The translations under genes and the position numbers were made by a program. Below are positions 1,280 to 64,000 of a stretch of DNA of 64,000 nucleotides, in pieces. Source of the DNA: Owenia fusiformis (lineage: Eukaryota > Annelida > Polychaeta > Sabellida > Oweniidae); assembly GCA_903813345.2 (NCBI GenBank), contig CAIIXF020000006.1:38345348-38409347 (forward strand). Reading direction: 5' to 3'. The notes beneath the pieces are model-generated. The model searched no databases. It saw nothing but the letters and a program-made list of their open reading frames with translations, and was not told where the DNA came from. How positions within the stretch are numbered: position 1 is the first letter of the stretch; each line of letters starts with the position of its first letter.

Positions 1280-3058
1280 TTAATCTGTATCCCACTCCTT
1301 AATCCATCTATATACTGTCTTGGTGTTATCCTCATGCAACCACTGTACCTCAAGCACTGAACCTTTCTTGAGATCTCTATTCCTTAGGAAATTATTCACC
1401 TGTTGTAGTGTGTCAAGCAAGGAATGAATCATATCACCCTCTTTGATATCATCTGGTTTGAGGTCTTCCTGCAACAACATGTCCCACCAGGATGTGTCAG
1501 TGGTGTGCTTCACATGCTGCATGATCCACAGTAGGGCAGCACATTCATCAGCGTTAATATTAAGTTTTATCATCCTCTTAGGGTAATTTATGTCTGGTAC
1601 TTTTAGGTGATTATAATTGTATATATTGGTTTCAATCCCATCAATACATTGTTTCTCATGTGGGAGGAACTGGTCCACTATGTCCTCAAGGCACTGTCCA
1701 ACATTCTCGTTCTGACAACCTCTTTGGTGATGGTGAAGTAACATTTTGTATGAATATGAAGAAGAAATTGTTTTTACTTTGAAATTGGTTTCAATCAGAT
1801 GTTTGATATATTTGAATGTCAGGAATAAATAATGGTGATTTGTTGATAATGTGTGTGTATTTGTATCATCCTGGAGTCCTGCATGTACAAGTGACTCGGT
1901 CCAGTGAGTAAAACGATTATTACACTTGTCACAGTCCACAAGGTACCTACCCACCATAACACACCTTCTCTGGGTGTCACTCATATTCTCCACTCCAAAA
2001 GAGAGATCTATGTCTGTTGTGCACATAGGGGCACCAATCCGTAACCATACACTGGTTCCATGACTTCCCTCATGTAGACTGATGGTTCCCAGTGGGTATG
2101 GAGACTCTGGATCATCATGATGATTTTTATCACCAATGTACTCATACTTGTCACTGTCACTCAGGTAGTGTTGAATGGCAAAATGCAATGTTTCAAGAAA
2201 GAATGTAGTCAGTTTACTTGAAACAGGTTGACTCTGAGGAATAGTCCCATCAGGTGATGATATCTGAGGTAATCTATTAATTGATCCACTCATACCAGGT
2301 TGATTCTCTTCAAGTCCATGTTGTGCAAACGACTGCTGCAGTTCAATGACCAAATGCAATATTGCGAGAAAGGTTGTAGCCATTTTACTTGAACCAGGTA
2401 GACTCTGAGGAATAGTCCCAAGTGCTGATATAGTCTCAAGTGATGATATCTGAGGTGATCTATCAATGGATCCACTCATACCAGGTTGATTCTCTACAAG
2501 ATGAAGTCTAAGTTGTGAAAACAACTGGTGCAGTTCACCATGTTGTATATTGATGAAACCATAACCCTGTCCTGCCCTATTACACATCTCCCCCACCTCT
2601 TCCACATTGACTGCTGCATCAAATGACCATGCAAAGATCGGAATGTAGTCATACTCACTTGGTGATAAAATCTTAGTTTCTTCATATGAACTGCCTCTTC
2701 TGATGATATTGCTAGATTGTAATATTGGATTAGGTTTTCCTTTGTTGGACAAATCATCTTTAGGACTGTGCATTCCAAAACCTATACATAATTCTTTCAC
2801 AAACTTCTCAACATATTCAGTGTGTTCATTAAGCTGCTCTGGTGTGTATCTGTTCTTGACATTAACTTTTGATGCAATGTACTTCACAAATTCTGTTAAA
2901 CGTTCTACTCCATCAGATGTAGAAGTTGGTATTTTGTAGCCTTTTAAAGTGTCATAGTCCTTAGGCTTAGGAAAAGGTCCAGTTAACTCAATGTTGTGAA
3001 TAGGTCTCTTTGAAGATTTAGTAAGGTACGGTTTCAAGCTAAGTTGTGAAGCTGCCAT
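1280..3058 (-). CDS. cGAS-like receptor / Mab-21 family nucleotidyltransferase, single exon
   Basis: The 592-residue protein starts at ATG 3058 (M-A-A-S); an upstream in-frame TTG at 3073 is not used. What is seen: the nucleotidyltransferase GS motif at G122-S123-S124, then E135 and D137 in a P-S-E-Y-D context, a third acidic pair D349/D351 in T-D-I-D-L, and an S-Y-S-Y-K stretch near 434-438, as in Mab-21/cGAS folds. From family knowledge, proteins with all three acidic residues make cyclic or linear dinucleotides after sensing nucleic acid and signal through STING in the cytosol. Between the second and third acidic residues lies an insertion of ~120 residues made of two tandem copies (about 185-247 and 248-304, sharing E-N-Q-P-G-M-S-G-S-I). 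I see no obvious cGAS-type zinc thumb. The ORF is uninterrupted and appears intronless. An enzymatically silent Mab-21-like protein is the alternative, but the intact acidic triad argues against it. Confidence 0.75.
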   Translation of the reverse strand: MAASQLSLKPYLTKSSKRPIHNIELTGPFPKPKDYDTLKGYKIPTSTSDGVERLTEFVKYIASKVNVKNRYTPEQLNEHTEYVEKFVKELCIGFGMHSPKDDLSNKGKPNPILQSSNIIRRGSSYEETKILSPSEYDYIPIFAWSFDAAVNVEEVGEMCNRAGQGYGFINIQHGELHQLFSQLRLHLVENQPGMSGSIDRSPQISSLETISALGTIPQSLPGSSKMATTFLAILHLVIELQQSFAQHGLEENQPGMSGSINRLPQISSPDGTIPQSQPVSSKLTTFFLETLHFAIQHYLSDSDKYEYIGDKNHHDDPESPYPLGTISLHEGSHGTSVWLRIGAPMCTTDIDLSFGVENMSDTQRRCVMVGRYLVDCDKCNNRFTHWTESLVHAGLQDDTNTHTLSTNHHYLFLTFKYIKHLIETNFKVKTISSSYSYKMLLHHHQRGCQNENVGQCLEDIVDQFLPHEKQCIDGIETNIYNYNHLKVPDINYPKRMIKLNINADECAALLWIMQHVKHTTDTSWWDMLLQEDLKPDDIKEGDMIHSLLDTLQQVNNFLRNRDLKKGSVLEVQWLHEDNTKTVYRWIKEWDTD

Positions 3059-3935
3059 TTTCTTCAATTTCAATGATTTTTTACTTCTATTTTGTTCTTT
3101 ACTAGTTCACTCAAGTATAATTATGTATGCTGAAATAGTTTTGGGTATAATATTGCATACAATTGATAAGATTTTCTGTTTTAAAGTAAACTGTTCAAGT
3201 ATCTTAACCTATTTGAGATAAGCATTTTTGAGTAAAGGGGTAAGCATTTTTATTAATATTTAACTGCTCAAAGTCTGAGCTGAGACTAACATATGATGGT
3301 CTCAGGTCTAAGTACAGTATGTGGTTTATAAAAATCTAAACATTTAAAAGAAAACCACATAGTTCATTTTGCCATTCTCTGCATAAAAGAAATAGAATAG
3401 GTTCTAGAAGAAGAGGTTCTCTTCTAGAAGAGGTTCTCTTCTAGATGAGCTAGTGAAAGGTTCTAATCAAATAAATGCCCCGCATAAAGGCTACACCTCT
3501 TTGATTAACATTGTACCTTTTTTAATTTCAAAAGTGTTTTTTGAAAGAGTTTAGTGCCACATTAGATATCGCACTTATCATTGAAAAAGTGTGTCATTTG
3601 TTCAATATTCACAATGGTTTTACAAAGATAATAGGGAGTTTAAGCTTGCATGTAAAGTCGAAACGCCAACCTATACATATGACCAATCACCCATACAAAT
3701 GCATCGCTTTAATATTTGTAACAATTCTTACAGATGCCAAACACTAAAATCAGACACCAACCAATGGTCACAAAAAATGCAACTACATTTACATGTACTT
3801 CTTGGTAGCAACCAAATAATGAAAATGTATATGCAACAATCATTTGATTATTCAAAATCTCGTATTTATTTAGATAAAATATCAAATCGTCATCACTATA
3901 TATTTTAGAATCCACATTTTTCTGAAAATCATTTT
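3059..3935. other. Upstream region of the cGAS-like gene
   Basis: AT-rich and without a convincing gene. A short direct duplication of GAAGAGGTTCTCTTCTAGA-like sequence lies at ~3409-3444. The promoter of the minus-strand gene should lie just above 3058, but I see no clear core element. Confidence 0.4.
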
Positions 3936-37770: not shown

Positions 37771-37961
37771 ACACTGATTGGCGCGGTGAGTTCACAGGTT
37801 TATTTTAGTTTGAAAGAGTGAAGACGAAGCTCTCTTTTAAGAAGTGAAGTCAAACGAATGCAAAGGGTATTCTGAAATCGAAATCAACGTTGATTTGGCA
37901 CATAAGGAGAAGTTCAAGGTTCAAATACTACATATCAGTTGACAATTCAAATCGGGAAGAA

Positions 37962-40873
37962 ATGTCTTATTTCATATCATTACTCCTTATTTTTGGAACA
38001 ATTGCGTTGACTAACGCCGATGATGATGTTCGTACTTTGAGTAACCCCGTGATACAAACGTCCCATGGGAAAATTCGGGGAGCAACGCGCAGCAAGTCAA
38101 TCCGACCAGGTATAAAGCCTAATGACACTTTAACATTCACAGAATATCTAGGGGTACCATATGCCAAAGCGCCCCTGGGTTCTCTAAGATGGAAACTACC
38201 TGAGACCCCATCACCTTGGAATGAGACAAAAGACGCGGTTGGATATAGCGATAATTGTTACCAGGCTCCGTTAGATACTAAATTCGGAAACATTTCGGAA
38301 GATTGTCTTTATTTGAACATCTGGAGCACGCTTGATTACACCCAGGACTCGGCTGTTATTGAAAATCAGAACCTGAGTGTGATGTTTTTTGTCCACGGGG
38401 GTGGCTTCAAAACAGGCTTTGCCAGGTTCTTCGGCGGATATCTCGCCGATGCGGAGAATGTGATTGTCGTGGCGGCCAACTACAGATTGGGTTTGTTTGG
38501 ATTCATGACGACAGAGGACGCCACTATACCTGGTAACTATGGCATGCACGACTTGATTAAAGCCCTGGAATGGGTAAAGGCTAACATTCGAATGTTCGGC
38601 GGAGATCCAGACTCCGTGACAATCTTTGGTGAATCAACTGGTGCAGGCGCTGTATCACATTTGATGCTCTCTCCATTGACCAAAGGCTTGTTCAAAAGAG
38701 GGATCGCAGAGAGCGGCGAGGCTACATCTCCTTTTGCGTTTGGCGTGAACTATCAACGTCTCGTAACAATGGAGCTGTCAAATAGGGTCGGATGCGGGGA
38801 GATAGTTAACGAAGCGATGAGGACCTGCATGGAGTTGGTTCAAGCCGAGACACTTCAGACAACACTAAGCGCTATACAACAAGAGATGCAGCCGAGGAAT
38901 GACAGCAAGGCTGATTTCTACCCGACCATTGATGGTTTTTTCATGAAAGACACGCCTTTGAATGTCCTTAAAAGTGGGGACTTTGAGCCACGAGACTATA
39001 TCACTGGATTTAACAGTCACGAAAGTTACTTTCTATGGTTCATACAGTTTTCCGCAGGTTTCACAACCTCTTTGAAGGCTGGTTTAACTGAAGCGCAAAT
39101 GGACACAATGCTTAAGGGCAACGTTAAATACTTGGACAATAATGACATAACGACAGGAAATAACTTTTTTAAAACGGTCAAGCAGTTTTATGGGGATTTT
39201 GAAAGCCCTCCAGAAATGCTATCCCAGAAACGCAGCGTTGGTTTTTATAACTTCTTAACTGATTTCCTTTATGGTGCGCAAAGTCAGCGTTTTGCCGATT
39301 ACTTCTCGAGGAAATCCAGGGTGTATAGTTATTACCTTAGTGCCAAGGTCTCCCCGGATATGCGCATTCTCCCCGGGGATCCTAGTGGGCCGCCCGATTA
39401 CGTTCTCTCAAGTCATGGGGATGATTTGGCGTTTGTATTTGGTGGCGCAAAGTATATTTCGTCCTTGAATGCCACATTGGAGGAACAGAATCTAAGTACA
39501 AAGATGATGCGTGCTTGGGCGAATTTTGCCAAAACTGGGTTTGTATGTTTTGAAGAAAATATTGATGTTTGATTACCCGATGGTTTCTATAATGTTTACA
39601 TTCATAATTTTCGTGTGACGCACGTGTAGGAGCCTTTCCGAGTTCCGACTGAATATCTAGCTATGAGGTCAAGGTCGTTCAAAAGGCAAAATCCAATTTG
39701 TAAATAGGACATTTAACATTTTTCGAAAACACGAACACCGTGTCTTTAAACAGATAAAGACATTCATATTTTATTAAACTTTGTTATTTACTATAGTTTT
39801 TTAACTATTTTTTTTAAGGAATCCGAATCCAACAAACACCAGCAGCGCCCCCTTTGCTGCCCAAGATGACTGGCCGGCCTACAATGAGACACATAGGTGG
39901 TATTACTCATTAACGACACCTAGTGTGAACAATAAAGCTTTGAATGGAGTCATACCTGGAAGAATGGCTCTCTGGAAGGACTTTATATGGGAGGTCATAG
40001 ATCGACCACAAGCGGAATGTCAAGGTCAGTGCATCCACTCATAGTATTTGATATGGTATCTAAAACATATTGTATGATACGTCTATTTATGAAGTGTATT
40101 GTTTAATGTCCGGTTGGTCAAAACGTATAACCATTAAAAACAAAAACATTATTATTATGTACTAGTATCAGGTTCCCAAATATCAACCGTTTTCAGGTTC
40201 CCACTGTTCTCTACCGAGTAGTTTCATTAGTAGCCATTTATGATTGCAGCTCCCTCGACACCATCTTCACCGTTTACATCATCTGCATCATCTTTAACGA
40301 CGCCAACAGTATCTAGCGCATCCACATCAAACTGTGAGAGCGCCTGCACGGCACAGCTACGGAAGGGTGCCGGAGTATCAATTCAGCCCAGTCAAGTTGG
40401 AGCAGTGATATGGTCGCTCACAGGTACAGAGATAATACGATTTAGATATTCATTCTTGCTCTGAAGCCTCTGTCTCCTCAATATAGTTCGTAAAGTGCTA
40501 TGAAAAGATTTGTTCAAGTTAATTAAAAGACATCGGCAGAACAAGTTTTGTTTCAAATCTCTAATTTCTGATTTCATTCGGGGCCACCCTACCTCCAAGA
40601 ATACTTAGCTTCATTGGCCATTTAAAATCATTTTTTTCAATTTTTATTTTTTGAAAATTGAGTTCTCAACCATATAGCATAAAGGCGAGACGACTCATTT
40701 GTTATGGGCACCAAAACGTTAATAACCAAAAACAAAATCATATTTTTTTCATTTCAGGTCTTAGCGGCGTCCTGTTAATCACGTGTATTATATTGCTGAC
40801 CCGGGTATGCTCTAAGAAGACATCTCAGATTAGAAACATTGACTATGAGGAAGAACTCAGAGAACGTCGATAA
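37962..40873 (+). CDS. Membrane-anchored carboxylesterase / cholinesterase-like protein, four exons
   Basis: Exons 37962-39538, 39819-40024, 40250-40423 and 40758-40873 join in phase to 690 residues. The start is the ATG giving M-S-Y-F-I-S-L-L-L-I-F, a clear signal peptide; an in-frame TTG further upstream is not used. Seen: oxyanion hole H-G-G-G at 145-148, nucleophile S225 in G-E-S-T-G, acid E354 in G-F-N-S-H-E-S, and H485 in S-S-H-G-D-D. The type-B esterase triad is therefore complete and it is probably an active enzyme, unlike neuroligins, which lack it. Exon 3 gives a Ser/Thr-rich stalk (A-P-S-T-P-S-S-P-F-T-S-S). A transmembrane helix spans the exon 3/4 junction (V-G-A-V-I-W-S-L-T-G-L-S-G-V-L-L-I-T-C), then a short charged tail ends E-E-E-L-R-E-R-R. 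Topology: catalytic domain outside, tail in the cytosol. The substrate cannot be told. AATAAA occurs at 41281-41286. Confidence 0.9.
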
Positions 40874-45055: not shown

Positions 45056-47338
45056 TGTGATGATCCTCCCTTGCTTAATACAATGTTATGTGATTATTCT
45101 GGAGGATAATCACTTTGTTTGAATTGCTCTTACCTTTATTTATCAATTATGTTTGTAGATACTTCATAATTCAGGAGTTTGTTCAGAATTTTCTTATTTC
45201 ACTACTTCCTTGTTTGTTGATAGTCTCATTAAAACGTTTATATGTGAATTTCCAACACTAGGCACATTATGTCAACTTTATATCAAATGTTGGTCATGTT
45301 ATTGTTTATTTTAGCAATATTTAATGTTTATTATGTGTGATTAATTATAGGGGCCAAACTAAAGCGATTACATTTTATTTTGAGACTATATAATTTTGGC
45401 TAGATTTGCATGAATCATCAGTTCTTCAGTGAGACTTTGAATCACCGGCAAGTAACAGGAATTAACTTTCTCTCTGCATTTTGGAATTAATACACATACA
45501 TATTGGATATATAACATCTTATTAGATACACTAACCTAGGTGAACGGGTTAGTAAGGTAATGGAATTACTTTTACTCTAAAACAGAGAAACTGTTTATAC
45601 TTTTTCCTTGTTGGTGAATCTTCTGATTTCTCTCACTCATTTAGCTTCATTTACATTAGCATGAATTCATTTAAACCTTGTTGAGGGTTATTGTATCAGG
45701 TTCAAAAAGAATATTCAGGGCCATTTTGTATGATTACGACTTTGATTTCAATCTGCCTGGTCACGCCTTGAATCAAACTGTGGCTGTACGTATTTATATA
45801 GCAGATTAATTTGAACTCTCAGAATTTTATTTCTAATTAACCTTATAAGCATTGAGCGAGCTACGTGTACATTATTGTGAGAAGCATTTCTGATTCATTT
45901 GAAATTTACAGATTGACCTACATGTATATTTAAGATTCAATCGCCAACTTGGTATTTTTGGCTTTATCTTATATAATTTGAGGGTAATATCTGTTTGCCA
46001 GTGTCAATTATTTGTGTCACTGAAAATGTCCACACTTTAAAGCTAGATTACTTTAGAAACTTTCAACTTGTGAGAAACATTGGCTATATTTGTTCCCAAA
46101 GTTTTACTATTATTGCATGTAGTATTATTTCACATTTTATTCTAAATATTCCCGAGACGAGTTGGTTTGGGGTGATCAAGGCAATCTTCATATTTGCTGA
46201 CACTCTTTAGGGGATCTGTGTTGCACCTGGTTAGTATCATCAGGCATGGACTAGTTACGATTTTTTAGTTGTAAAACAGCTTCACAGCATAACCATCTTT
46301 TGAGCGCTCCATTCATTTCACTGGGCATATTTTATTTATCTTAATCGTGATTGCACGAATACTGAAATTCTGAAAGAATCTAGCAATTGTTATATTTTTC
46401 ACTTCATTACAGAGTTATTTAAATATTTCCGGGGTAAGGTCATTATACAGAGTAGGAAGGGCAATTAATTGGCTGCTACTTTTGTTTGTCCCAGGGAACT
46501 AAGCATAGCCAGTGTTGGTATTAATTTGCTCATATAAAGCCTCACAGCATTTTAAATCTTTGTGTGCCTTTGTAATTACTGTGAGAAGATCCTATTTGGA
46601 ATTTTGCATAACTGTCTTAAGTTTTTGTCCCATTTGCTACACAGTGACTATCCGACCACCTTTATATTTTCATTGCACTAATCAAACCCCTAGTCTTAGT
46701 CAGCTCCCATGTGGCCACATTATCTGTATTACATGTAAACACCTTCTGAAAACATTTGATCATTATCACTATCCCGAACAGGAGATACAATTAGCCTGTA
46801 CTCATTGTATTGATGCGTATCTGGCTATTTTAGCCCGTTCAGAACCCTTCTAAGAATTTATCTTGTATTGTTTTTATGATGACAATACAACCCCCCTTTT
46901 GCCTGTATTGAACTAATTAGACAGGTCATTTTACCAAGTGAGGAAAACTGGCAAGCAGAATTCAGAGTATCAAGTTACGTTAATAGTTTGCATTGAATTT
47001 CCTAGATACACTGAATTTCATAAGTGTATTTGACTGAAAAGAACGTTACTTTCTGTTTTATTGCATAACTGATGGTAAATCTATGTAGAATTGTATAACC
47101 AAACAAATGTATATATCTTGAAATAGAGTTGAATTATATTCATTTTATATAATTTCCCATTACATTCTCTGTTGTGTTGAATGATTGTGTAAAGTGAATG
47201 TGGATATAGATCAGTGTTTGAAAAGACCCCCATTCCCATATATTTTACAATCTATTGTCAAGCTAGACCATTAAAAATCCAAATACTTGATAGCTGGGTA
47301 ACCCAGGACCACGCTACCCAACACCCTGGGTTGCCACA
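45056..47338 (+). repeat. Left LTR of the retroelement
   Basis: Unusually long at 2,283 bp and AT-rich, with TG...CA ends. It contains a RING-like open frame at ~46512-46853, described separately. Confidence 0.93.
46512..46853 (+). other. RING-finger-like open frame inside the LTR
   Basis: The ~113-residue frame has the spacing of a C3HC4 RING finger: C-P-I-C, then L-P-C-G-H-I-I-C-I-T-C, then C-T-H-C. RING domains bind two zinc ions and usually serve ubiquitin ligases. The same frame recurs in the right LTR at 52420-52761. It is a part of this element; whether it is expressed is unknown. Confidence 0.5.
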
Positions 47339-50963: not shown

Positions 50964-53246
50964 TGTGATGATCCTCCCTTGCTTAATACAATGTTATGTG
51001 ATTATTCTGGAGGATAATCACTTTGTTTGAATTGCTCTTACCTTTATTTATCAATTATGTTTGTAGATACTTCATAATTCAGGAGTTTGTTCAGAATTTT
51101 CTTATTTCACTACTTCCTTGTTTGTTGATAGTCTCATTAAAACGTTTATATGTGAATTTCCAACACTAGGCACATTATGTCAACTTTATATCAAATGTTG
51201 GTCATGTTATTGTTTATTTTAGCAATATTTAATGTTTATTATGTGTGATTAATTATAGGGGCCAAACTAAAGCGATTACATTTTATTTTGAGACTATATA
51301 ATTTTGGCTAGATTTGCATGAATCATCAGTTCTTCAGTGAGACTTTGAATCACCGGCAAGTAACAGGAATTAACTTTCTCTCTGCATTTTGGAATTAATA
51401 CACATACATATTGGATATATAACATCTTATTAGATACACTAACCTAGGTGAACGGGTTAGTAAGGTAATGGAATTACTTTTACTCTAAAACAGAGAAACT
51501 GTTTATACTTTTTCCTTGTTGGTGAATCTTCTGATTTCTCTCACTCATTTAGCTTCATTTACATTAGCATGAATTCATTTAAACCTTGTTGAGGGTTATT
51601 GTATCAGGTTCAAAAAGAATATTCAGGGCCATTTTGTATGATTACGACTTTGATTTCAATCTGCCTGGTCACGCCTTGAATCAAACTGTGGCTGTACGTA
51701 TTTATATAGCAGATTAATTTGAACTCTCAGAATTTTATTTCTAATTAACCTTATAAGCATTGAGCGAGCTACGTGTACATTATTGTGAGAAGCATTTCTG
51801 ATTCATTTGAAATTTACAGATTGACCTACATGTATATTTAAGATTCAATCGCCAACTTGGTATTTTTGGCTTTATCTTATATAATTTGAGGGTAATATCT
51901 GTTTGCCAGTGTCAATTATTTGTGTCACTGAAAATGTCCACACTTTAAAGCTAGATTACTTTAGAAACTTTCAACTTGTGAGAAACATTGGCTATATTTG
52001 TTCCCAAAGTTTTACTATTATTGCATGTAGTATTATTTCACATTTTATTCTAAATATTCCCGAGACGAGTTGGTTTGGGGTGATCAAGGCAATCTTCATA
52101 TTTGCTGACACTCTTTAGGGGATCTGTGTTGCACCTGGTTAGTATCATCAGGCATGGACTAGTTACGATTTTTTAGTTGTAAAACAGCTTCACAGCATAA
52201 CCATCTTTTGAGCGCTCCATTCATTTCACTGGGCATATTTTATTTATCTTAATCGTGATTGCACGAATACTGAAATTCTGAAAGAATCTAGCAATTGTTA
52301 TATTTTTCACTTCATTACAGAGTTATTTAAATATTTCCGGGGTAAGGTCATTATACAGAGTAGGAAGGGCAATTAATTGGCTGCTACTTTTGTTTGTCCC
52401 AGGGAACTAAGCATAGCCAGTGTTGGTATTAATTTGCTCATATAAAGCCTCACAGCATTTTAAATCTTTGTGTGCCTTTGTAATTACTGTGAGAAGATCC
52501 TATTTGGAATTTTGCATAACTGTCTTAAGTTTTTGTCCCATTTGCTACACAGTGACTATCCGACCACCTTTATATTTTCATTGCACTAATCAAACCCCTA
52601 GTCTTAGTCAGCTCCCATGTGGCCACATTATCTGTATTACATGTAAACACCTTCTGAAAACATTTGATCATTATCACTATCCCGAACAGGAGATACAATT
52701 AGCCTGTACTCATTGTATTGATGCGTATCTGGCTATTTTAGCCCGTTCAGAACCCTTCTAAGAATTTATCTTGTATTGTTTTTATGATGACAATACAACC
52801 CCCCTTTTGCCTGTATTGAACTAATTAGACAGGTCATTTTACCAAGTGAGGAAAACTGGCAAGCAGAATTCAGAGTATCAAGTTACGTTAATAGTTTGCA
52901 TTGAATTTCCTAGATACACTGAATTTCATAAGTGTATTTGACTGAAAAGAACGTTACTTTCTGTTTTATTGCATAACTGATGGTAAATCTATGTAGAATT
53001 GTATAACCAAACAAATGTATATATCTTGAAATAGAGTTGAATTATATTCATTTTATATAATTTCCCATTACATTCTCTGTTGTGTTGAATGATTGTGTAA
53101 AGTGAATGTGGATATAGATCAGTGTTTGAAAAGACCCCCATTCCCATATATTTTACAATCTATTGTCAAGCTAGACCATTAAAAATCCAAATACTTGATA
53201 GCTGGGTAACCCAGGACCACGCTACCCAACACCCTGGGTTGCCACA
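50964..53246 (+). repeat. Right LTR of the retroelement
   Basis: Same length as the left LTR and apparently identical in sequence. It ends 7 bases before the CACATGACAGTCACGTGAC sequence that may belong to the downstream gene's promoter. Confidence 0.93.
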
Positions 53247-54809: not shown

Positions 54810-57800
54810 ATGGCGAAACTACTGAACACTCTTACGCTCGTTAAACCACAGTTAAACTCAAAGCTGTTTGATTTAACATTGAGAACATTTTCAAATTCAA
54901 AAGTTCTGGTATCAAAACAGCCTGCTTTGCCGGACTACAACACATCTGTGAACATTCATGAACACAAGCTGAAAAGACCCGATAAACCACCTCCGAAATG
55001 GACTGGATTGAAAGGCTTGGAAAAGAGAGCTAAGGTTTGGAAAACGCGACAGTAAAACATGTTAAATTGAACACCTCTAGTACAGTACCTCAAAAAAGTG
55101 TTTCATTTGGAAAAAATGTTTATGTTCAAATCTAGGCGGTATAACATGTATAACTTGTATAACATGTATAAAAATGTTCCACTTAGAGAGGTTGTTTTAC
55201 ATTTAACTGCTTGAATCCAAGGCTCTAAAATCTGTTGAAACCAGAGAACTTTTTGCCAGCTTTTGGCTTTTTATTACATCACATAAAACAATTAGATGGC
55301 ATAGATCATTTCTACACATTATTTTTGTGTGAATTGAATAAAAATTGTTCAAATAAGAGCAATTTTCAGTTCAGTGTTCTCCACAGAATCTTTTCTAAGG
55401 TGGGTGCAAAATTCCCATTTTCACTATTCAGGCCAAAATTGGTCAAAATATGCCAATATTTCATGATTTTTTTCATTTTTCAAGTGGGTGCAAATGGCTT
55501 TTCAGATGGGTGCAAGTCTGTTTTTAAAATCTCAGGTGGGTGCTGTGCCTACTTGCTTTAATGCTGGGGAGATCACTGGTTTTAATATATTTTGTATATT
55601 TCATAGGGGTCTCTCATACCAGACACTCTTAAAGAAATGGAGGAAAGTGAAGAGTTTAAATTGACAGCTGCCAGATTGAAAGAACTTGGTCAGAAAAAAC
55701 TAACGAGGGAGGAACGAAAACAACGTCAAAGAGCTTTAGATAATCTTGGAATCCCAAGTTTTGTAGAGTTTTGGCAAAAAGCAAAGCTTGAATTTGGAAT
55801 TGATGGTAAGTTTTGACCCATCTTTTCAGCCTATTTAGTACTGTACTCACTTTCTATTTGAGTGTTTTCATTCACTTTCTATTTAAGGGTTTACACTTAC
55901 TAAAAAGTTAATCAATACTAATTTTGTCATCTTATAGATCCCGCAACGGAGATAAGAAAACAACCAATCAACATTTTCCAGATCAACGTTGGTTTATATT
56001 GCAATCAGGCGTGTAACCATTGCCATGTGGAGTCATCCCCAAAACGCAAGGAGATGATGGACAGAAAGACGGCAGACAAATGCCTTGAGGTCCTGGCGAA
56101 TAGTCCCTCTGTACACACTCTGGATCTGACTGGTGAGTGGGAGTGAAAATGTGCAGTTGTTTATGTGAGTGGGAGTGAAAATGTGCAGTTGTTTATGTGA
56201 GTGGGAGTGAAAATGTGCAGTTGTTTATGTGAGTGGGAGTGAAATGTGCAGTTGTTTATGTGAGTGGGAGTGAAAATGTGCAGTTGTATATGTGAGTGGG
56301 AGTGAAAATGTGCAGTTGTTTATGTGAGTGGGAGTGAAATGTGCAGTTGTTTATGTGAGTAGGAGTGAAATGTGCAGTTGTTTATGTGAGTGGGAGTGAA
56401 ATGTGCAGTTGTTTATGTGAGTGGGAGTGAAATGTGCAGTTGTTTATGTGAGTGGGAGTGAAATGTGCAGTTGTTTATGTGAGTGGGAATGAAATGTGCA
56501 GTTGTTTATGTTAGTGGGAGTGAAAATGTGCAGTTGTTTATGTTAGTGGGAGTGAAAATGTGCAGTTGTTTATGTTAGTGGGAGTGAAAATGTGCAGTTG
56601 TTTATGTTACTGGGAGTGAAAATGTGCAGTTGTTTATGTGGCATAAAACTTAAGATTGGAGAGAGGACTTTTTTTACATGACTGGGGAGAAGTGCTACTC
56701 TAAATCTCTTAAAACTCTAAGAATTGAGGGCATACAATTGAGCAAACTGTGGTGTACTTAGACTTGTATTTATATTGCATTTAGGGTTTACAGATTAAAT
56801 TATACAGTAAATCCTGTTTTATTGAACACCTCTCTCTAATGAACACCAGTGTCTAGTGGACACCCTTTTCCCGCACTTACTAACTTCTGTTTAAATTATC
56901 CTCTCTTTAATGAATACTAACACACTGAACATTGGCTAGATTGATGATGTCATAGGTTGTAGATAGCAATCTGTCCAGGCAAAAATAGTCATGTTTTCTT
57001 ATTTTGAAAAAGTACAGTCTATGATTCTTTTAATCAATCTGGACAATATATAGATGTTATTTAATGGGAGGTTTTTGATTCAGGGATATCATATGAGGAT
57101 ATCATTCTGAGGGAAATACAATATATCTACCCGAGGGACCGTATGTTATTTACCTATAACACTACTAAGTATGGGATATATCATAGCTTCTTTGATGTAC
57201 AATAAGGGGCCAGGGTTTATTGGTAAGGTCTATTATGTTCTTCCTCCAATCACAGGGCTTCAAAATCCAGAATATATTCTTTCTTTTTACCCCCTGCGAT
57301 AAGCAGTTAGCATTTCCCCGATTAAGAACTCGCAATCTGATTGGCTGTCGCAACACTGATAGAAATCATGTATAAGTCATTACGCATAATAAGATCAAGT
57401 GATTCAGTTTAATCATGTGTTTCAAATTGGTTATAGCAGGGGGAAGAAGGAGGTACAGATTCTGGATACCTGCTTAGGAGGATGATTATGTTGGAATCGT
57501 GTATTGATCCTTGTAGACAGAACACTCAACTGAGCAAAAGTTTATACATATCTCCAATATGTCACCTTCAAGTGGTGACATATTGTCATAGTATCCAATT
57601 TTGTGACGGCGTTCAATGAGTGGCAGTTGATGTTCAGTGTTCAGCATCTGTAACAAATAGCAGGTGATGACATTTTGCATGTTTACTAATGCTACATATA
57701 TGAATTGCATATTTAGAGAAATCTAATTTTTTTGTTTCCATCTGTTGCAGGTGGGGCTCCAGAACTGTGTGATCAGTTCCGTCATCTAGCGAAGGGTGCT

Positions 57801-60800
57801 AGGGAGTTGGGCAAGACAGTCATCGATCGTTGCAACTTAACAGTTCTCGAGGAACCGGGTTAGTTTATTTAATCAATTATCATTACCCCCACAGCTTTGA
57901 ATGATAATTAGCTCCATTCTGATTGGTCTTGTTTCTAAAACTAAGTTCACACCAACGGCGCTTTAATGGCGCTTTAAAGCGGCGTGCATAGCCAGAGCTG
58001 TCAAGTGTCCCGCGAATGGCGGGATTATCCCGCGAATTCGATCAAAATTAGGCTAATTCACGTGTCCCGCAATGTCCCGCGAAGTCCCGCAAATGTGGCT
58101 TTCGACCTCCGCGAATTTCCGAAATTGTTGCAATCCCCTATATGGTGATTATCTTATCTTATATAAGAAGCTAAGTTTTTGCACTTTTGAGGAGTAAAGT
58201 TTACCTAATTTTAAGTACCTAGCATGCTGTTGTTTGGTATCAAAATAAAGAGGAAGGGTTCAACTTTCATTTTAATTACGACAATAATGTAGGTCACAAA
58301 TAGTTCCAACGTTGGCCTTTTTACTATCCGTGTGGCCTTCATCTCAGGACTGAGCAAATGTTAGCAAACGCGAGTTACAATAAATGGACGCTGATATCTA
58401 GAAAGGGTTTGTAGAAAAAACCGGGTACCGGGTAGTAAATCCTCCATGCTGGGTTCAAACTTGGTACCCGGTACCCGGTCAAAAAACGGGTACCCAAAAA
58501 ATGAAAAATACAAATATACGAGTATAACATAATTAGATTATCAGAAAACGTGTAAGATTTGTTTTGAATTTACAAAAATGTATGTAACATCCTTCAAAAT
58601 TGAGCTAGAAGCTTCAAATAAAAAGCATATTTTAAGGCTCTTTTCTTCCTCTATCGTCATGACCATATTTTCATTGGTTATGTTCACGTACCAACATACG
58701 AATTATTGAAAATAGAGTAAAATTGATTTGTCTTGTTATTCAAATCGTCTTACAATGTCATTGGCGTAGCCAGGAGAGGGTGTGATGGTGCGATCGCACC
58801 CCCCCCCCTTCATTACCAATGGAAATATGACAATGATGATACTGAGAGGAAGAAAAGAGGCTTAAATGCTTTTTATTTGAAGCTTCTAGCTCAATTTTGA
58901 AGGAAGTTACATTTTTGTAAATTCAAAACAAATCTTACACGTTTTCTGATAATCTAATTATGTTATACTCGTATATTCGTATTTTTCATTTTTTGGGTAC
59001 CCGTTTTTTGACCGGGTACCGGTTACCAAGTTTGAACCCAGCATGGAGGATTTACTACCCGGTACCCGGTTTTTTCTACAAACCCTTTCTAGAAAAGTAA
59101 CCTCATTCCCTATAATTTGATGTAGATTAATCGAACCCCTATATCATGGGCTTTCAATTGAAATCCCGCAAATTTAGGGCACTTTTTCTAGAAAATCTGT
59201 CCCTCTATGAAGTTTTTGCTGGTAAACCTGTTAACTGTCCCGCAATTAGGGTGTTTGTCCCTCGAATGGTCCCGCGAAATCCCGCGAATTTGATAAAAAA
59301 AATTGGCCTATAAGCGCAATCACGCAAATCCCTTAAATGTCCCGCGAAATCCCGCGAATTTAGTAGATGTCCCGCAAAATCCCGCGAATTTTGGGCACTG
59401 GGTCTAAAAAATCTGTCCCGCGAGAAAATCTTTGGGGGTTGACAGTACTGGCATAGCACAATATATAAGCTAATCTGAACACATTTGGTCAATCTCATTG
59501 ATGTTCAGTATAGACAGGTTTTACCGTATTAAATTGACAATTTCATTGTTACACAGGTCAAGAAGATTTGGGAGAATTCCTCGCTGAAAACAAAATCCAA
59601 GTGATCGCCTCTCTGCCTTGTTACACGGCGAAGAATGTCAACACACAGCGAGGAAGTGGCGTGTTTGACAAGAGTATATCTGCCCTTAGGAAGCTTAACT
59701 CACTTGGATTTGGTGTTGAGGGAAGTGACTTGCATCTTGATCTTGTGTATAACCCATTGGGTAAGGGCATACATTATTTTCGTAGACTTGCTTTCATTAA
59801 ACACATATTTTGGTTATCTGCCTCTAGTTATGCGCCATTCGTAGGTTTGCATTAGACCCCCCACGTGGGAAGGGTCAGGAATTTGGCAGTCCCCAGGGTG
59901 AGAGTAATAGTCCCAAGAGTAAGGGTTGGAGTCATTTAAGGTATTTTCACAATTGTTGATTGACAATTATGGTACCAATGGTCCTCCTTTGTTTTATAGG
60001 TAATTACTTACCTCCTCCACAGGAGGAATTGGCCCATCAGTATAAGACTGAGATGATGGAGAACTTTGGAGTTGAGTTCAATATGTTATTTACCATGACG
60101 AACATGCCTATTAAGAGATTTGCTGACTTTCTATACAGAAGGTAGGATTTGGTACATCTTATTCTTATTCAGTCATTCTTGCAATCCAAATGTCTATCTT
60201 ATCTGAACACGTCTCAATGTGAACACTTTTTTTCTTGGTATCAACCGTATCATTGGCTTAGATGTTTATAAACCTTGAAACAGAGGGGGAGAAACACCAG
60301 GGTTCAAAGATGACATACGCTTATAATGTAAATCTGTATTGAGATGACATCGTCACTGATTGGTCAAAAGTCGACAAACAAATGACGTCATCAATGGTTC
60401 AAATAATATTATGTTCATTTCTGGCGTGTTAACCAATATCATAGCTTCTCATTTCACATCAAGATAAGGAAAGGTGTACAGAATATGCCTATGTCAATTA
60501 AAACATCCCATCGAAGTGTAATATTTGATAACTAGCCGATGAAAATTCAAACGAACGAAGGTGGTAAGCAAGAGAGGTAATTATGTCTGTCATCTTTAAA
60601 CTCTGGGGCTTTCCCTCCTCTTACCTTGAAATGTAAACACCTACTGATCCAAACACATTGGGCTGTCCCAGAGGCGATAGGATTAGTCAGGTTTTACTGG
60701 ATAACTCGAGGTTTTGAGCAAAAGTTGAGTTTCTCTTGTTTCGCTTATTATTTTAAGGAAATTTTCAATTGGTTCCATATTAATATCTCCAATTATTTTC

Positions 60801-62089
60801 ATTGATGTTTTCATTAGTTTTGCCTGTCATGAAGTGATGACATGTTGTAATAGTCTCCAACTTTCTTCAGTGGACAGCGGTCAATGTTTGCCATCTGTAA
60901 CAAATGGCAGGTGGTGGCATTTTGCATGTTGATGCCTTGTTATCATTTATTTTTGCCTGTAAATTGGAACACCTCTCTAAGCTAAGTGGAACCCCTCAAG
61001 ACCAGTTTTCAAAGTCTAGTTTCTAATTAAGATATTGTTAAATGAACACCTTCCAAGTGGATCACTATTTTCCAAGTGGATCACTATTTTCCAAGTGGAT
61101 CACTATTTTCCAAGTGGATCGCTATTTTACAAGTGGATCACTATTTTCCAACTGGATCACTATTTTCCAAGTGAATCACTATTTTCCAAGTGGATCACTC
61201 CAAGTGGATCACTATTTTCCAAGTGGATCAATCCAAGTGGATCACTATTTTCCAAGTGGATCACTATTTTCCAAGTGGATCGCTATTTTGATGTACGAAT
61301 GTTGTTCTACTTACACAGGTTTTACTGTACAGGAAAATCTGTCTTATATGAATGCTTCTGGACCGACCAAAAGTGTTCAGATTAGCAGGTGTTCACATTT
61401 CAATGTTTTATAAACATATAAGTCAATGTGAGATAACAAATTGCAGATAGAGAAAAAGTGTTCACATGGAGACTCAGTGTTCGGATTAATTAATAATAAG
61501 TGTCCGGATATACAGGTTTCACTGTACATAATTTGTTTTCCTACTTTCTACTGTAGGAATGAACTCCAGGAATATCTTGAGCTGCTAGTGCGCAACTACA
61601 ACATTGCGACAATTGATAACCTGATGTGCCGCAATCACCTTAATGTAAGCTGGACTGGAGAACTATTTGATTGCGACTTCAATCAGCAGATGAGCCTTGG
61701 AATACATAAAGGTAAATTAAGAATCGTTTAAAACTTTCTGAAAACTAAGCTATTCAGGAATATTTTTAAGGCATCATTTCAGGCATCCTCCAAAGGATAT
61801 TTTTCAAATTATGGTTGGACCTGCATTACTGTGAAATAGTTAAATTTTGTATTTTAATGATAAAGAGAAAAAATAGTTTATTGTGATCTTTCAAATGCTG
61901 TATTGTGTGAAATTTTTTAAATGAAACAACGATAAATATTTTTTAATTTCAGAGAATGATAAAAAAGGACTGTCCGTGTTTGATATCACTTCTACTAAAG
62001 ACCTTGAAGGTCTCGTTGCAAATAACGACAACCACTGCTTTGGTTGTAGTGCTGGTATGGGGTCTAGCTGACAGGGAGTGACAGTCTAA
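54810..62089 (+). CDS. arsS: ArsS-type radical SAM selenoprotein (arsenosugar biosynthesis family), eight exons
   Basis: Exons: 54810-55034, 55607-55805, 55938-56132, 57751-57858, 59557-59760, 60000-60141, 61557-61711 and 61953-62089. They join in phase to 454 residues if TGA 62069-62071 is read as selenocysteine (448 if it stops there). The start is ATG 54810 (M-A-K-L-L-N-T-L), giving a basic, Ser/Leu-rich leader like a mitochondrial presequence. Seen: radical SAM cluster C163-N-Q-A-C167-N-H-C170, the S-adenosylmethionine-contact motif T-G-G-A-P-E (206-211), and the DUF3641-type Cys-rich C-terminus (M-C-R-N-H-L-N-V-S-W-T-G, F-D-C-D-F-N, then H-C438-F-G-C441-S-A-G-M-G-S-S-U449-Q-G-V-T-V). From family knowledge, ArsS works with the methylase ArsM on the route from arsenate to arsenosugars, and some bacterial members use selenocysteine. 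The family has S-S-Cys at the TGA position. A SECIS hairpin in the 3' UTR supports recoding. The donor of exon 1 (AAG/GTTTGG) is weak. No ArsM lies nearby. Confidence 0.9.
55050..55205. mobile_element. AGTGGAACACC-family MITE in arsS intron 1
   Basis: It opens with AAAACATGTTAAATTGAACA and closes with GTTCCACTTAGAGAGGTTGT then TTTACA, inverted relatives of the family ends. The repeat ATAACATGTATAA occurs inside. Confidence 0.55.
55372..55578. mobile_element. ~205-bp MITE, CAGTGRTCTCCCCAG family, copy 3 (reverse)
   Basis: Starts CAGTGTTCTCCACAG and ends CTGGGGAGATCACTG. It is in the opposite orientation to the copies at 14068 and 21858. It ends 29 bases before arsS exon 2. Confidence 0.8.
56133..56640 (+). 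repeat. ~32-bp minisatellite starting at the arsS exon 3 donor, ~15 copies
   Basis: The intron begins GTGAGTGGGAGTGAAAATGT, and this unit (followed by GCAGTTGTTTAT) repeats about 15-16 times from the exact exon boundary (56132/56133). Most copies keep GTGAGT; a few have GTTAGT or GTTACT. Confidence 0.95.
56810..57180. other. arsS intron 3 repeats
   Basis: A partial relative of the ACAGTAAAACC family (CAGTAAATCCTGTTTTATTG at ~56807) is followed by GATATCATATGAGG-type sequence resembling the foldback element at 28.2 kb. Confidence 0.4.
57560..57700 (+). repeat. Dispersed repeat (GGCAGGTGGTGA family) in arsS intron 3
   Basis: Contains GTGACATATTGTCATAGT, AACAAATAGCAGGTGATGAC and ATTTTGCATGTTTA. 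It is related to 20255-20372 and 60835-60945. Confidence 0.6.
57993..59450. mobile_element. TIR element rich in TCCCGCGAA motifs, with nested foldback element
   Basis: Ends CAGAGCTGTCAA and TTGACAGTACTG are inverted apart from small differences. GCATAGC lies on both flanks (57986-57992 and 59451-59457). Dense GTCCCGCGAAATCCCGCGAA motifs lie inside both ends. A second element (58405-59085) sits within it. All of this lies in arsS intron 4. Confidence 0.75.
58405..59085. mobile_element. Foldback TIR element, GGGTTTGTAG family, copy 2 (681 bp)
   Basis: The same ends and inner GTGCGATCGCACC as 43289-44009. TCTAGAAA is found on both flanks, but the palindromic target makes its exact length uncertain. 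It lies inside the 57993-59450 element. Confidence 0.88.
60281..60622. mobile_element. 342-bp MITE, AGAGGGGGAGAAA family, copy 2, 9-bp target duplication
   Basis: Starts CAGAGGGGGAGAAACACCAG and ends CTTTCCCTCCTCTT. ACCTTGAAA lies at 60272-60280 and 60623-60631. The first ~85 bases nearly match 53721 onward. It lies in arsS intron 6. Confidence 0.88.
60835..60945 (+). repeat. Dispersed repeat (GGCAGGTGGTGA family) in arsS intron 6
   Basis: AACAAATGGCAGGTGGTGGC then ATTTTGCATGTTGATGCCTT matches the copy at ~20340. Confidence 0.7.
60955..61530. mobile_element. AGTGGAACACC-family element with 19-bp tandem array
   Basis: AATTGGAACACCTCTC at the left; CTACTTACACAGGTTTTACT at ~61308 closes the first element and a second ACAGG...CACTGTAC element follows to ~61530. 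Between 61050 and 61290 the unit CACTATTTTCCAAGTGGAT repeats about a dozen times. It ends 26 bases before arsS exon 7. Confidence 0.7.
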
Positions 62090-62290
62090 AATGGCACTAG
62101 AAAGGGCCCCTTAGTAACTTAACAATTACGATATTAAAGGGGCTCGTCAGTTGCTGTTGAGGGCTGTTTAACATTTGAAATGTTTGCAAAATATTGTTTT
62201 CAGTTTTACGAGAGACAAAAATAGCCCTGTATGAGGTTATTTAATGTAAAGTGATAATGGAACACTATTTTGCAAGTCGGTGGAGAATTA

Positions 62291-62388
62291 ATTGTTGTAC
62301 ATTGTGTATAATATCCAAGTGAATGATATAATGCACTGAAATCATGTAGTGCATTATTGATGTAGCTGGTAGCACAATGCACAACAAT
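62291..62388 (+). promoter_or_regulatory. SECIS element (selenocysteine insertion) in the arsS 3' UTR
   Basis: The core 5' strand ATGAT (62323-62327) faces TGAT (62358-62361), giving the non-Watson-Crick quartet U-U, G-A, A-G, U-U. Above it, 62328-62337 pairs perfectly with 62348-62357 (10 bp). The apical loop 62338-62347 starts GAAA, placing AAA 12 bases after AUGA, the usual distance. The basal stem 62291-62306 pairs with 62373-62388 at 15 of 16 positions. It lies ~220 bases after the TGA and ends at the poly(A) signal. From established knowledge, such hairpins bind SBP2 and recode UGA as Sec. Confidence 0.9.
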
Positions 62389-62391
62389 AAA
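62386..62391 (+). terminator. Poly(A) signal AATAAA of arsS
   Basis: AATAAA directly follows the base of the SECIS stem, so cleavage near 62405-62415 would keep the hairpin in the mRNA and exclude the following MITE. Confidence 0.7.
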
Positions 62392-62420
62392 TAGAAAATT
62401 GCACACCATGTGCGTTTATA

Positions 62421-62669
62421 CAGGGTGTACCAAAAAAACTTTACCCACCTAACCATGAATATCTCTTTAACCAAATAGAGTTTGATAAAAGAAAGTTTGC
62501 AGAATTAAAGTTAGTTCAATGTTCTTTAAGTTGACAGTTTCACCACCATTTGCCGGCCATTCAAATACTGTGCTCCAAATGTGCACAGCGTCTTTTGAGA
62601 CAGACTTAAATTGTGCAGACTTTCTTTTATCGAACTCTATTGGTGGGTAACGTTTTTTGATACACCCTG
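62421..62669. mobile_element. 249-bp mariner-type MITE (TA target)
   Basis: Ends CAGGGTGTACCAAAAAAACT and GTTTTTTGATACACCCTG are inverted, as are inner TTTACCCACC/GGTGGGTAA, with TA on each flank. The sequences outside both ends share GCACACC...GTGTG/CGTTT. Confidence 0.8.
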
Positions 62670-64000
62670 TAAATGCACACCGTATGTGTTTTAAAACAGG
62701 TGATTTATCATTGTCAGCACAGTCTTTCTCTTACACATTGTACATTCAAATTTTGATTTTTAAGTGAGTGTTATTTTGATGTTTTTGGTTCATATTCTCC
62801 CTTTAATTTGAGTCTGCAGTTGTACCCAATACTGGACTCGGATCTCAAAATTAACCATTTATCACTGATTTCCTATATATCCATTTTCAGTTACAATATT
62901 GAAAGAAAGATGGTGCTAATATCTGATGTGCCATTTTAATGTACTGGTATATACATGAATACAACTTTTAAAAAAAGTAATTGCCATATTGATTTTAATT
63001 TTACAATATGTATGATAATATAGATATACACACACAACATAATTTGAATATGTTATAAGATACATGGTGTTCATGACTTTTTGAACAATCTGTATATGAA
63101 TATGTGTCATAACGTTGAAAAAACTGAATGTGATAATCCATTTTTGTAATTATTTTCTGTCTGAAATTGTAAATTTATTAGACAGTATGTCATATCACCA
63201 TATTTTGAGGAAAATATACATGCATTCAACGTAAACATTGCAAAATGATGTACTAGTTCAGAAATATTGATTTCAATTTCATTTCTTGCCTAGATACAAC
63301 TATATATGAATCAAACACACAAAACTATATTTGATAATAATGTTTTAAATTGTATTATGTCCCATATATGATTATACCATAATTTATAGAAATTAAATAT
63401 AAACATTGTATTTTGTCTGCTTAATGTTTATAGATGCAATAGCGAAATGTAATAGTCCAGACTATTGATCTTTATTTTATTTTACTTTATTGAATTACGC
63501 GCACAAAACTATTTGATAATAATGTTTAAAATTACATTGTATACCATATATATTATATTGTATAGCATATATGATCTTACCATAGTTGGTACAAATGAAA
63601 TATAAAAGTTGTATTTTATTCTGCTTAATGTAAATAATACAGCTCTTATACGTAGATACAATCGCCATAGAAACATTGTATTTTTTTGTCTAGATACACA
63701 TTATTTATAATAACAACTTAGAGCAAGATGGCTTTCAGTCAAAAAATGATCTAATACAACAGTAATGTTATAAAAAACATGAACTGCATCGCTATTTGTA
63801 TATTTTGTATCTTTTAATTGTGATAATACTGTAAATGATATACTAACTCACTAATGTTGGGAAGAATATACTTATCTTATTTTACATAACATTGTCTTCA
63901 TCAGTCAAGTTGCACAAGTTGGCTCACTTTTAAGATTTTTATAGTACTTTGAAAAAGTGCTATTTTGTCATCGTTTTGTAAATTCCAGGAAAACTGCTCA
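62670..64000. other. AT-rich region after arsS
   Basis: No gene is recognised. A diverged ~165-bp duplication is seen: AAAACTATATTTGATAATAA...TCTGCTTAATGT at ~63320-63427 and a related block at ~63506-63630. Confidence 0.45.

What the first reader, a model, noticed from the sequence alone, without database searches (positions are those of the whole stretch)
61953..62391. Animal ArsS as a selenoprotein: in-frame UGA plus a near-ideal SECIS
The last exon reads H-C-F-G-C-S-A-G-M-G-S-S then TGA at the position where the family has Cys, then Q-G-V-T-V and TAA. The conserved tail thus continues past the TGA. The 3' UTR holds a hairpin at 62291-62388 with the AUGA/UGA quartet, a 10-bp perfect helix, an AAA loop 12 bases after AUGA and a long basal stem, followed directly by AATAAA. 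Bacterial ArsS members with Sec are known to me. I do not recall a described animal one and could not search.
Basis: partly seen in the sequence, partly recalled or inferred. Interest (0 to 1): 0.95.

Follow-up and report, generated by a model that had tools for sequence, protein, structure and literature searches.

The report
Selenocysteine in an animal arsenic enzyme
A marine worm gene for an enzyme that attaches a sugar-like group to arsenic appears to use selenocysteine, the rare selenium amino acid, at its end, and database copies of this gene in many other invertebrates seem to have been cut short at exactly that spot.

Summary
The window is from the annelid Owenia fusiformis. An eight-exon gene (54810-62089) encodes a full-length ArsS (TIGR04167, 410.7 bits, cut-off 300). 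An in-frame TGA lies at codon 449, where relatives have Cys, followed by QGVTV and TAA. The 3' region holds a hairpin with eukaryotic SECIS anatomy: the only strict match on either strand of the window, and 0 of 120,000 shuffles were as good. Rfam SECIS_1 aligns its AUGA, AAA and UGAU, but at 23.2 bits, below the curated 35. The genome has three tRNA-Sec genes (UCA). Of 147 listed homologs, 89 end exactly one residue before this site, 55 have Cys there, 3 lack the tail, none has another residue. Stop-type records span eight animal phyla; seven echinoderms and Priapulus have Cys. Forty-seven bacterial stretches carry TGA at this codon. Sec in bacterial TIGR04167 is published. Two animal surveys that I could read in part do not list it; an algal 'FeS oxidoreductase' selenoprotein may be the same family. 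Not shown: ortholog stop codons and SECIS elements, transcripts, selenium incorporation, enzyme activity.

The parts
54810..55034 (+). exon 1: start codon; looks like a mitochondrial targeting sequence (inference, not computed)
   Evidence: same protein annotated as P0002
55607..55805 (+). exon 2
   Evidence: GT-AG introns
55938..56132 (+). exon 3: radical SAM motif C163-x3-C167-x2-C170
57751..57858 (+). exon 4
59557..59760 (+). exon 5
60000..60141 (+). exon 6 (DUF3641 begins near the exon 5/6 boundary)
61557..61711 (+). exon 7 with conserved C382 and C397
61953..62089 (+). exon 8: tail HC-F-GC-SAGMGSS-U-QGVTV and TAA
62069..62071 (+). TGA proposed to be read as selenocysteine, residue 449
62087..62089 (+). 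TAA, proposed true stop
62291..62388 (+). SECIS-like hairpin with basal stem
62323..62361 (+). SECIS core: ATGA, helix II, AAA in apical loop, TGAT
62386..62391 (+). AATAAA polyadenylation signal

Best explanation
The gene encodes an animal ArsS, a radical SAM enzyme, that is a selenoprotein. A ribosome reaching UGA codon 449 inserts selenocysteine, directed by the SECIS in the 3' UTR acting through SBP2, eEFSec and Sec-tRNA (recalled general mechanism), and ends at TAA after five more residues. The mature enzyme has the usual [4Fe-4S] cluster on C163/C167/C170 and, by analogy with characterised ArsS, joins a 5'-deoxyadenosyl group to methylated arsenic. I infer that Sec449, near the invariant C438 and C441, forms a C-terminal selenol/thiol site that holds or reduces the trivalent arsenic substrate or renews the enzyme. 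Shown: gene, TGA, Cys/stop pattern, hairpin, tRNA-Sec. Inferred: Sec insertion, arsenic chemistry in the animal, role of Sec449. The Sec form was probably early in animals and became Cys at least twice, in echinoderms and in the Priapulus line.
For: Full-length match to TIGR04167 reaching residue 452, past the TGA (query written with C at 449). Tail classes 89 stop / 55 Cys / 3 no tail / 0 other among 147 listed proteins. Of 31 named animal records, stop-type in 21 (Owenia, Lingula, 10 bivalves, Lineus, 3 Branchiostoma, Ptychodera, Saccoglossus, Sycon, Tigriopus, Oithona), Cys in 8 (7 echinoderms, Priapulus), no tail in 2. TGA at the same codon in 47 bacterial stretches, 46 of 47 related to this protein by tblastn, all 47 with Gly two codons later, as in Owenia (the scan asked for TGA, so this is no rate). 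SECIS scan and shuffles, fold, Rfam SECIS_1 alignment. Three tRNA-Sec matches above cut-off, all with anticodon UCA by ARAGORN. In a tree of 46 chosen rows, the 29 named animals with a tail plus 4 unnamed rows form one clade, support 97/88. Function: passages of PMC12159101 state that a radical SAM enzyme adenosylates arsenic in oxo-arsenosugar biosynthesis, citing work on ArsS.
Against: Rfam SECIS_1 is below its gathering score (23.2 against 35), was missed in wider searches, and ranked behind a microRNA family (MIR5298, 28.8 bits, also below its own cut-off of 70). DNA of no other eukaryote could be read, so the codon after GSS there is unseen. An ATTAAA at 62133 could end some transcripts before the SECIS. 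No transcript, protein or selenium data. SECIS elements of other Owenia selenoproteins could not be fetched as a positive control, and SBP2/eEFSec were not searched, because the genome search was mostly unreachable. The role of Sec at the C-terminus is inference only.
Confidence: 0.92

Rival explanations
1. TGA is an ordinary stop. The protein ends at residue 448, the tail is dispensable, and the five codons beyond are a relic.
For: The public Owenia record ends at 448 residues; 21 of 31 named animal records end at the same place; ATTAAA at 62133 could remove the hairpin.
Against: Among 144 listed proteins with a tail, the ends fall at the one residue that is otherwise always Cys, in animals and algae, and bacteria have TGA there. 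A relic tail would hardly keep QG and its stop in register, and a SECIS-like hairpin would not be expected.
Confidence: 0.04
2. UGA is read through by a near-cognate tRNA or as another amino acid, not as Sec, giving a short C-terminal extension.
For: Readthrough extensions are known in animals (recalled), and no direct Sec evidence exists.
Against: Only Cys alternates with the stop in the listed relatives. tRNA-Sec genes are present and a SECIS-like hairpin lies 3'.
Confidence: 0.03
3. The hairpin is a chance or transposon-derived palindrome unrelated to the TGA.
For: The region is repeat-rich: an element with inverted ends lies at 62410-62680, just downstream. The Rfam score is below the curated cut-off, and a microRNA family scored better by bits and E-value (also far below its own cut-off).
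Against: Quartet, spacing and unpaired AAA all fit. No strict match in 200 kb of other Owenia DNA, both strands, and no shuffle as good in 120,000.
Confidence: 0.04

Closest known systems
Bacterial TIGR04167 radical SAM selenoprotein (rSAM_SeCys, GxxU, AAR34688.1), tables of PMC13188914 and PMC9312934 (passages seen)
   Same: Same family, same codon, GSS/GST-U-x-G tail
   Different: Bacterial SECIS lies in the coding region (PMC13188914 passage); here a 3' UTR SECIS-like hairpin, introns and a long N-terminal extension
ArsS / DUF3641 with Cys (echinoderms, Priapulus, brown algae, cryptophytes)
   Same: Whole protein alignable, near-identical tail apart from Cys
   Different: Cys instead of the TGA position
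Algal 'FeSoxR' / Aureococcus 'Fe-S oxr' selenoprotein (PMC7539508, PMC5917014; passages seen)
   Same: Possibly the same family: 'Fe-S oxidoreductase' is the database name of several algal ArsS homologs, some of stop type
   Different: Identity not checked; not among the 19 families that PMC7539508 names as also reported in animals
Known animal selenoprotein families (PMC3473315 Table 1; SelenoDB 2.0 Table 2, PMC3965025)
   Same: UGA plus AUGA..AA SECIS in the 3' UTR
   Different: ArsS is in neither list as seen, although Branchiostoma floridae, surveyed in the first, has a stop-type record (P0024)

Membership tests
ArsS, TIGR04167 | score above curated cut-off over the model | tested here: met
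   410.7 bits against 300, model 2-302 of 303
ArsS, TIGR04167 | radical SAM CxxxCxxC and DUF3641 domain | tested here: met
   C163, C167, C170; PF04055 31.5 bits (cut-off 29.5), PF12345 161.8 bits (24.9)
ArsS, TIGR04167 | adenosylation of methylated arsenic | not testable with these tools
   needs an enzyme assay
eukaryotic selenoprotein | in-frame UGA with homology continuing beyond it to a proper stop | tested here: met
   the stretch beyond is only five residues
eukaryotic selenoprotein | homologs with Cys at the Sec position | tested here: met
   55 of 147 Cys, 0 other residue
eukaryotic selenoprotein | SECIS in the 3' UTR: AUGA/GA quartet, helix of about 10-13 bp, unpaired AA 10-13 nt after AUGA, basal helix (definition recalled) | tested here: met
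   SECISearch3 not available
Rfam SECIS_1 (RF00031) | curated gathering score of 35 bits | tested here: not met
   23.2 bits, E 0.0076, full model, key bases aligned
eukaryotic selenoprotein | tRNA-Sec in the genome | tested here: met
   three matches over cut-off, anticodon UCA
eukaryotic selenoprotein | SBP2, eEFSec, SepSecS, SPS2 in the genome | not tested
   never sent; the genome search was mostly unreachable
eukaryotic selenoprotein | TGA and SECIS conserved in orthologs' DNA | not testable with these tools
   no DNA of other animals was on hand
eukaryotic selenoprotein | selenium in the protein | not testable with these tools
   needs 75Se or mass spectrometry

The most novel reading that the evidence does not exclude
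ArsS is an overlooked selenoprotein family of animals, present as the Sec form in the common ancestor of living animals and kept by many marine invertebrate lineages. These animals would make arsenosugar-type organoarsenicals themselves by a selenium-dependent enzyme instead of only taking them up from algae, tying arsenic detoxification directly to selenium supply.
Probability: 0.4. Interest if true: 0.85.

Novelty: new member of a known kind. Interest (0 to 1): 0.68.

Why it matters
If true it adds a family to the animal selenoproteome that the surveys I could read in part do not list, explains why records from eight animal phyla end at the same residue, and makes two open questions testable: whether marine invertebrates synthesise arsenosugars themselves, and whether that chemistry depends on selenium.

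Full report
WHAT IS THERE. The window lies in a 498-Mb assembly at G000:C6:38345348-38409347. A public Owenia fusiformis protein is 100% identical to the gene described here (P0002), on a contig of the same length as C6, 40,838,847 bases, so I take the source to be that annelid (taxonomy). The gene has eight exons, 54810-62089; all seven introns are GT-AG. It has 454 codons with one internal TGA, codon 449 at 62069-62071, and ends at TAA 62087-62089. The public record stops at 448 residues, just before the TGA.

WHAT PROTEIN IT IS. TIGR04167, 'arsenosugar biosynthesis radical SAM (seleno)protein ArsS', matches at 410.7 bits (cut-off 300), residues 147-452, through the TGA position (C was written at 449). 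Pfam gives Radical_SAM and DUF3641. In an alignment of 45 homologs, chosen by me from the 120 listed, the radical SAM cysteines and those that correspond by motif to Owenia C382, C397, C438 and C441 are invariant.

THE UGA POSITION. Two protein searches (query Owenia; query Tigriopus) listed 147 different proteins. Sorted by tail: 89 end exactly at the residue before position 449, 55 have Cys there, 3 have no tail, none has another residue. Among 31 named animal records 21 are stop-type, 8 Cys and 2 without tail (an isoform and a short record). The stop-type animals are an annelid, a brachiopod, ten bivalves, a nemertean, three lancelets, two acorn worms, a sponge and two copepods; the Cys animals are seven echinoderms and Priapulus (group names are mine). 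Some algae are stop-type too (Triparma, Chrysophaeum, Bigelowiella), others Cys. Only the best 120 rows of 7998 and of 7995 proteins were listed, so these are not family-wide rates, and the DNA of these records could not be read.

BACTERIA. A DNA pattern for C-[FY]-G-C-T-A-G-x-G-x-x-TGA, with the two codons before TGA partly restricted, was run over the collection of one genome each for 84,980 prokaryote species and gave 47 stretches. 46 of 47 are related to the Owenia protein by tblastn at E up to 1e-3; the other (L043) has the site near a contig end. A few come from the same assembly. In all 47 the second codon after TGA is Gly, as in Owenia. The pattern demanded TGA, so this shows that Sec-form relatives exist in Nitrospirota, Bacillota, Thermodesulfobacteriota and others, not how common they are. 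The published bacterial motif for TIGR04167 is GxxU (PMC13188914 table, passage seen); Owenia has G-S-S-U.

THE SECIS. A scan for ATGA, helix II of at least 9 pairs with at most one mismatch, unpaired AA 9-13 nt after ATGA, and the GA partner finds one site on both strands of the window: 62323-62361, 254 bases after the TGA. The same scan finds none in 200 kb of other Owenia DNA, both strands; a looser setting finds 4 in the window. Dinucleotide shuffles of 62090-62450: 1 of 3000 and 27 of 120,000 contain any site; 0 of 120,000 one as good. The 108-nt stretch folds at -34.5 kcal/mol, z -4.29. Rfam SECIS_1 aligns over its whole length with AUGA, AAA and UGAU on the consensus ones, 23.2 bits, E 0.0076. 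This is under the curated 35 bits; the wider searches did not list it, and MIR5298 ranked above it, also below its own cut-off. AUGA..AA is the usual form in the invertebrates surveyed, sponges apart (PMC3473315, section read).

MACHINERY. The genome has three tRNA-Sec matches above the Rfam cut-off (76.1, 76.1, 74.1 bits); ARAGORN calls all three tRNA-SeC with anticodon UCA. Other factors were not searched; the tool left 36 calls unanswered.

EVOLUTION. With the tail columns removed, a quick tree of 144 homologs and 12 bacterial Sec rows needs 14 changes between stop-type and Cys. In a careful tree of 46 chosen rows, which needs 6, all 29 named animals plus four unnamed rows form one clade (97/88), with Sycon as its first branch (next fork 91/58); echinoderms form one clade (99/98), and Priapulus pairs with an unnamed Cys row (100/98). 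Strictly, the 'metazoa' label needs four changes there because of the unnamed rows, which I take to be animals too. Vertical descent with the stop-type as the early state, and at least two changes to Cys, fits best; rooting and deep branches are weak, and several bacterial rows have long branches.

HOW IT MAY WORK. A radical SAM enzyme adenosylates arsenic in oxo-arsenosugar biosynthesis (PMC12159101 passage, citing Cheng et al. 2021 on ArsS). The predicted fold of the Acanthaster ortholog is that of radical SAM enzymes. The Sec/Cys sits eight residues after the invariant C-x-x-C of the tail. I propose that the three make a selenol/thiol site for trivalent arsenic or for resetting the enzyme; this is inference. 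The N-terminus looks like a mitochondrial presequence, also inference.

IS IT KNOWN. Nine literature searches in an open-access PMC library listed no paper that I recognised as reporting an animal Sec-ArsS; I saw listings and starts of abstracts, and opened ten papers in part. Table 1 of a survey of six invertebrates (PMC3473315, sections 5, 6, 11, 12 read) lists 21 families without it, although it covers Branchiostoma floridae, whose record P0024 is stop-type. SelenoDB 2.0 (PMC3965025, passages) does not show it. The algal survey PMC7539508 (passages) has a family FeSoxR, and Aureococcus has 'Fe-S oxr' (PMC5917014, passages); several algal ArsS homologs carry the database name Fe-S oxidoreductase, so the algal Sec form may already be in print under that name. 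I did not see their sequences. Subscription journals and preprints were not searchable.

VERDICT. Direct proof (ortholog DNA, transcripts, selenium) is still missing.

Noticed in passing
56133-56640: A 32-nt unit repeated about 16 times (97% matches) starts exactly at the exon 3 donor GTGAGT, so intron 3 opens with many copies of its own splice donor.
   Followed up: partly
58397-59093: Near-perfect long inverted repeat (186, 47 and 22-nt arms, 95-99%) inside intron 4, probably a foldback element.
   Followed up: no
62410-62680: Short element with inverted ends (28 and 38 nt, 82-89%) right behind the polyadenylation signal.
   Followed up: no
46509-46853 and 52417-52761: Two copies of the same 114-aa reading frame, a duplicated repeat; no Pfam match for the first copy.
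   Followed up: partly
37848-39572: Carboxylesterase-family open frame of 574 aa (PF00135, 387.9 bits).
   Followed up: no
1280-3106, minus strand: Open frame of 608 aa without a Pfam match.
   Followed up: partly
L079, L080, L081 (own genome): Three tRNA-Sec genes, two of them with identical scores on different contigs.
   Followed up: no
L016, L019, L026, L030, L036, L042, L047, L051: Gemella records carry TGA at the Sec codon of ArsS with a GGET tail; whether they have Sec machinery was not checked.
   Followed up: no
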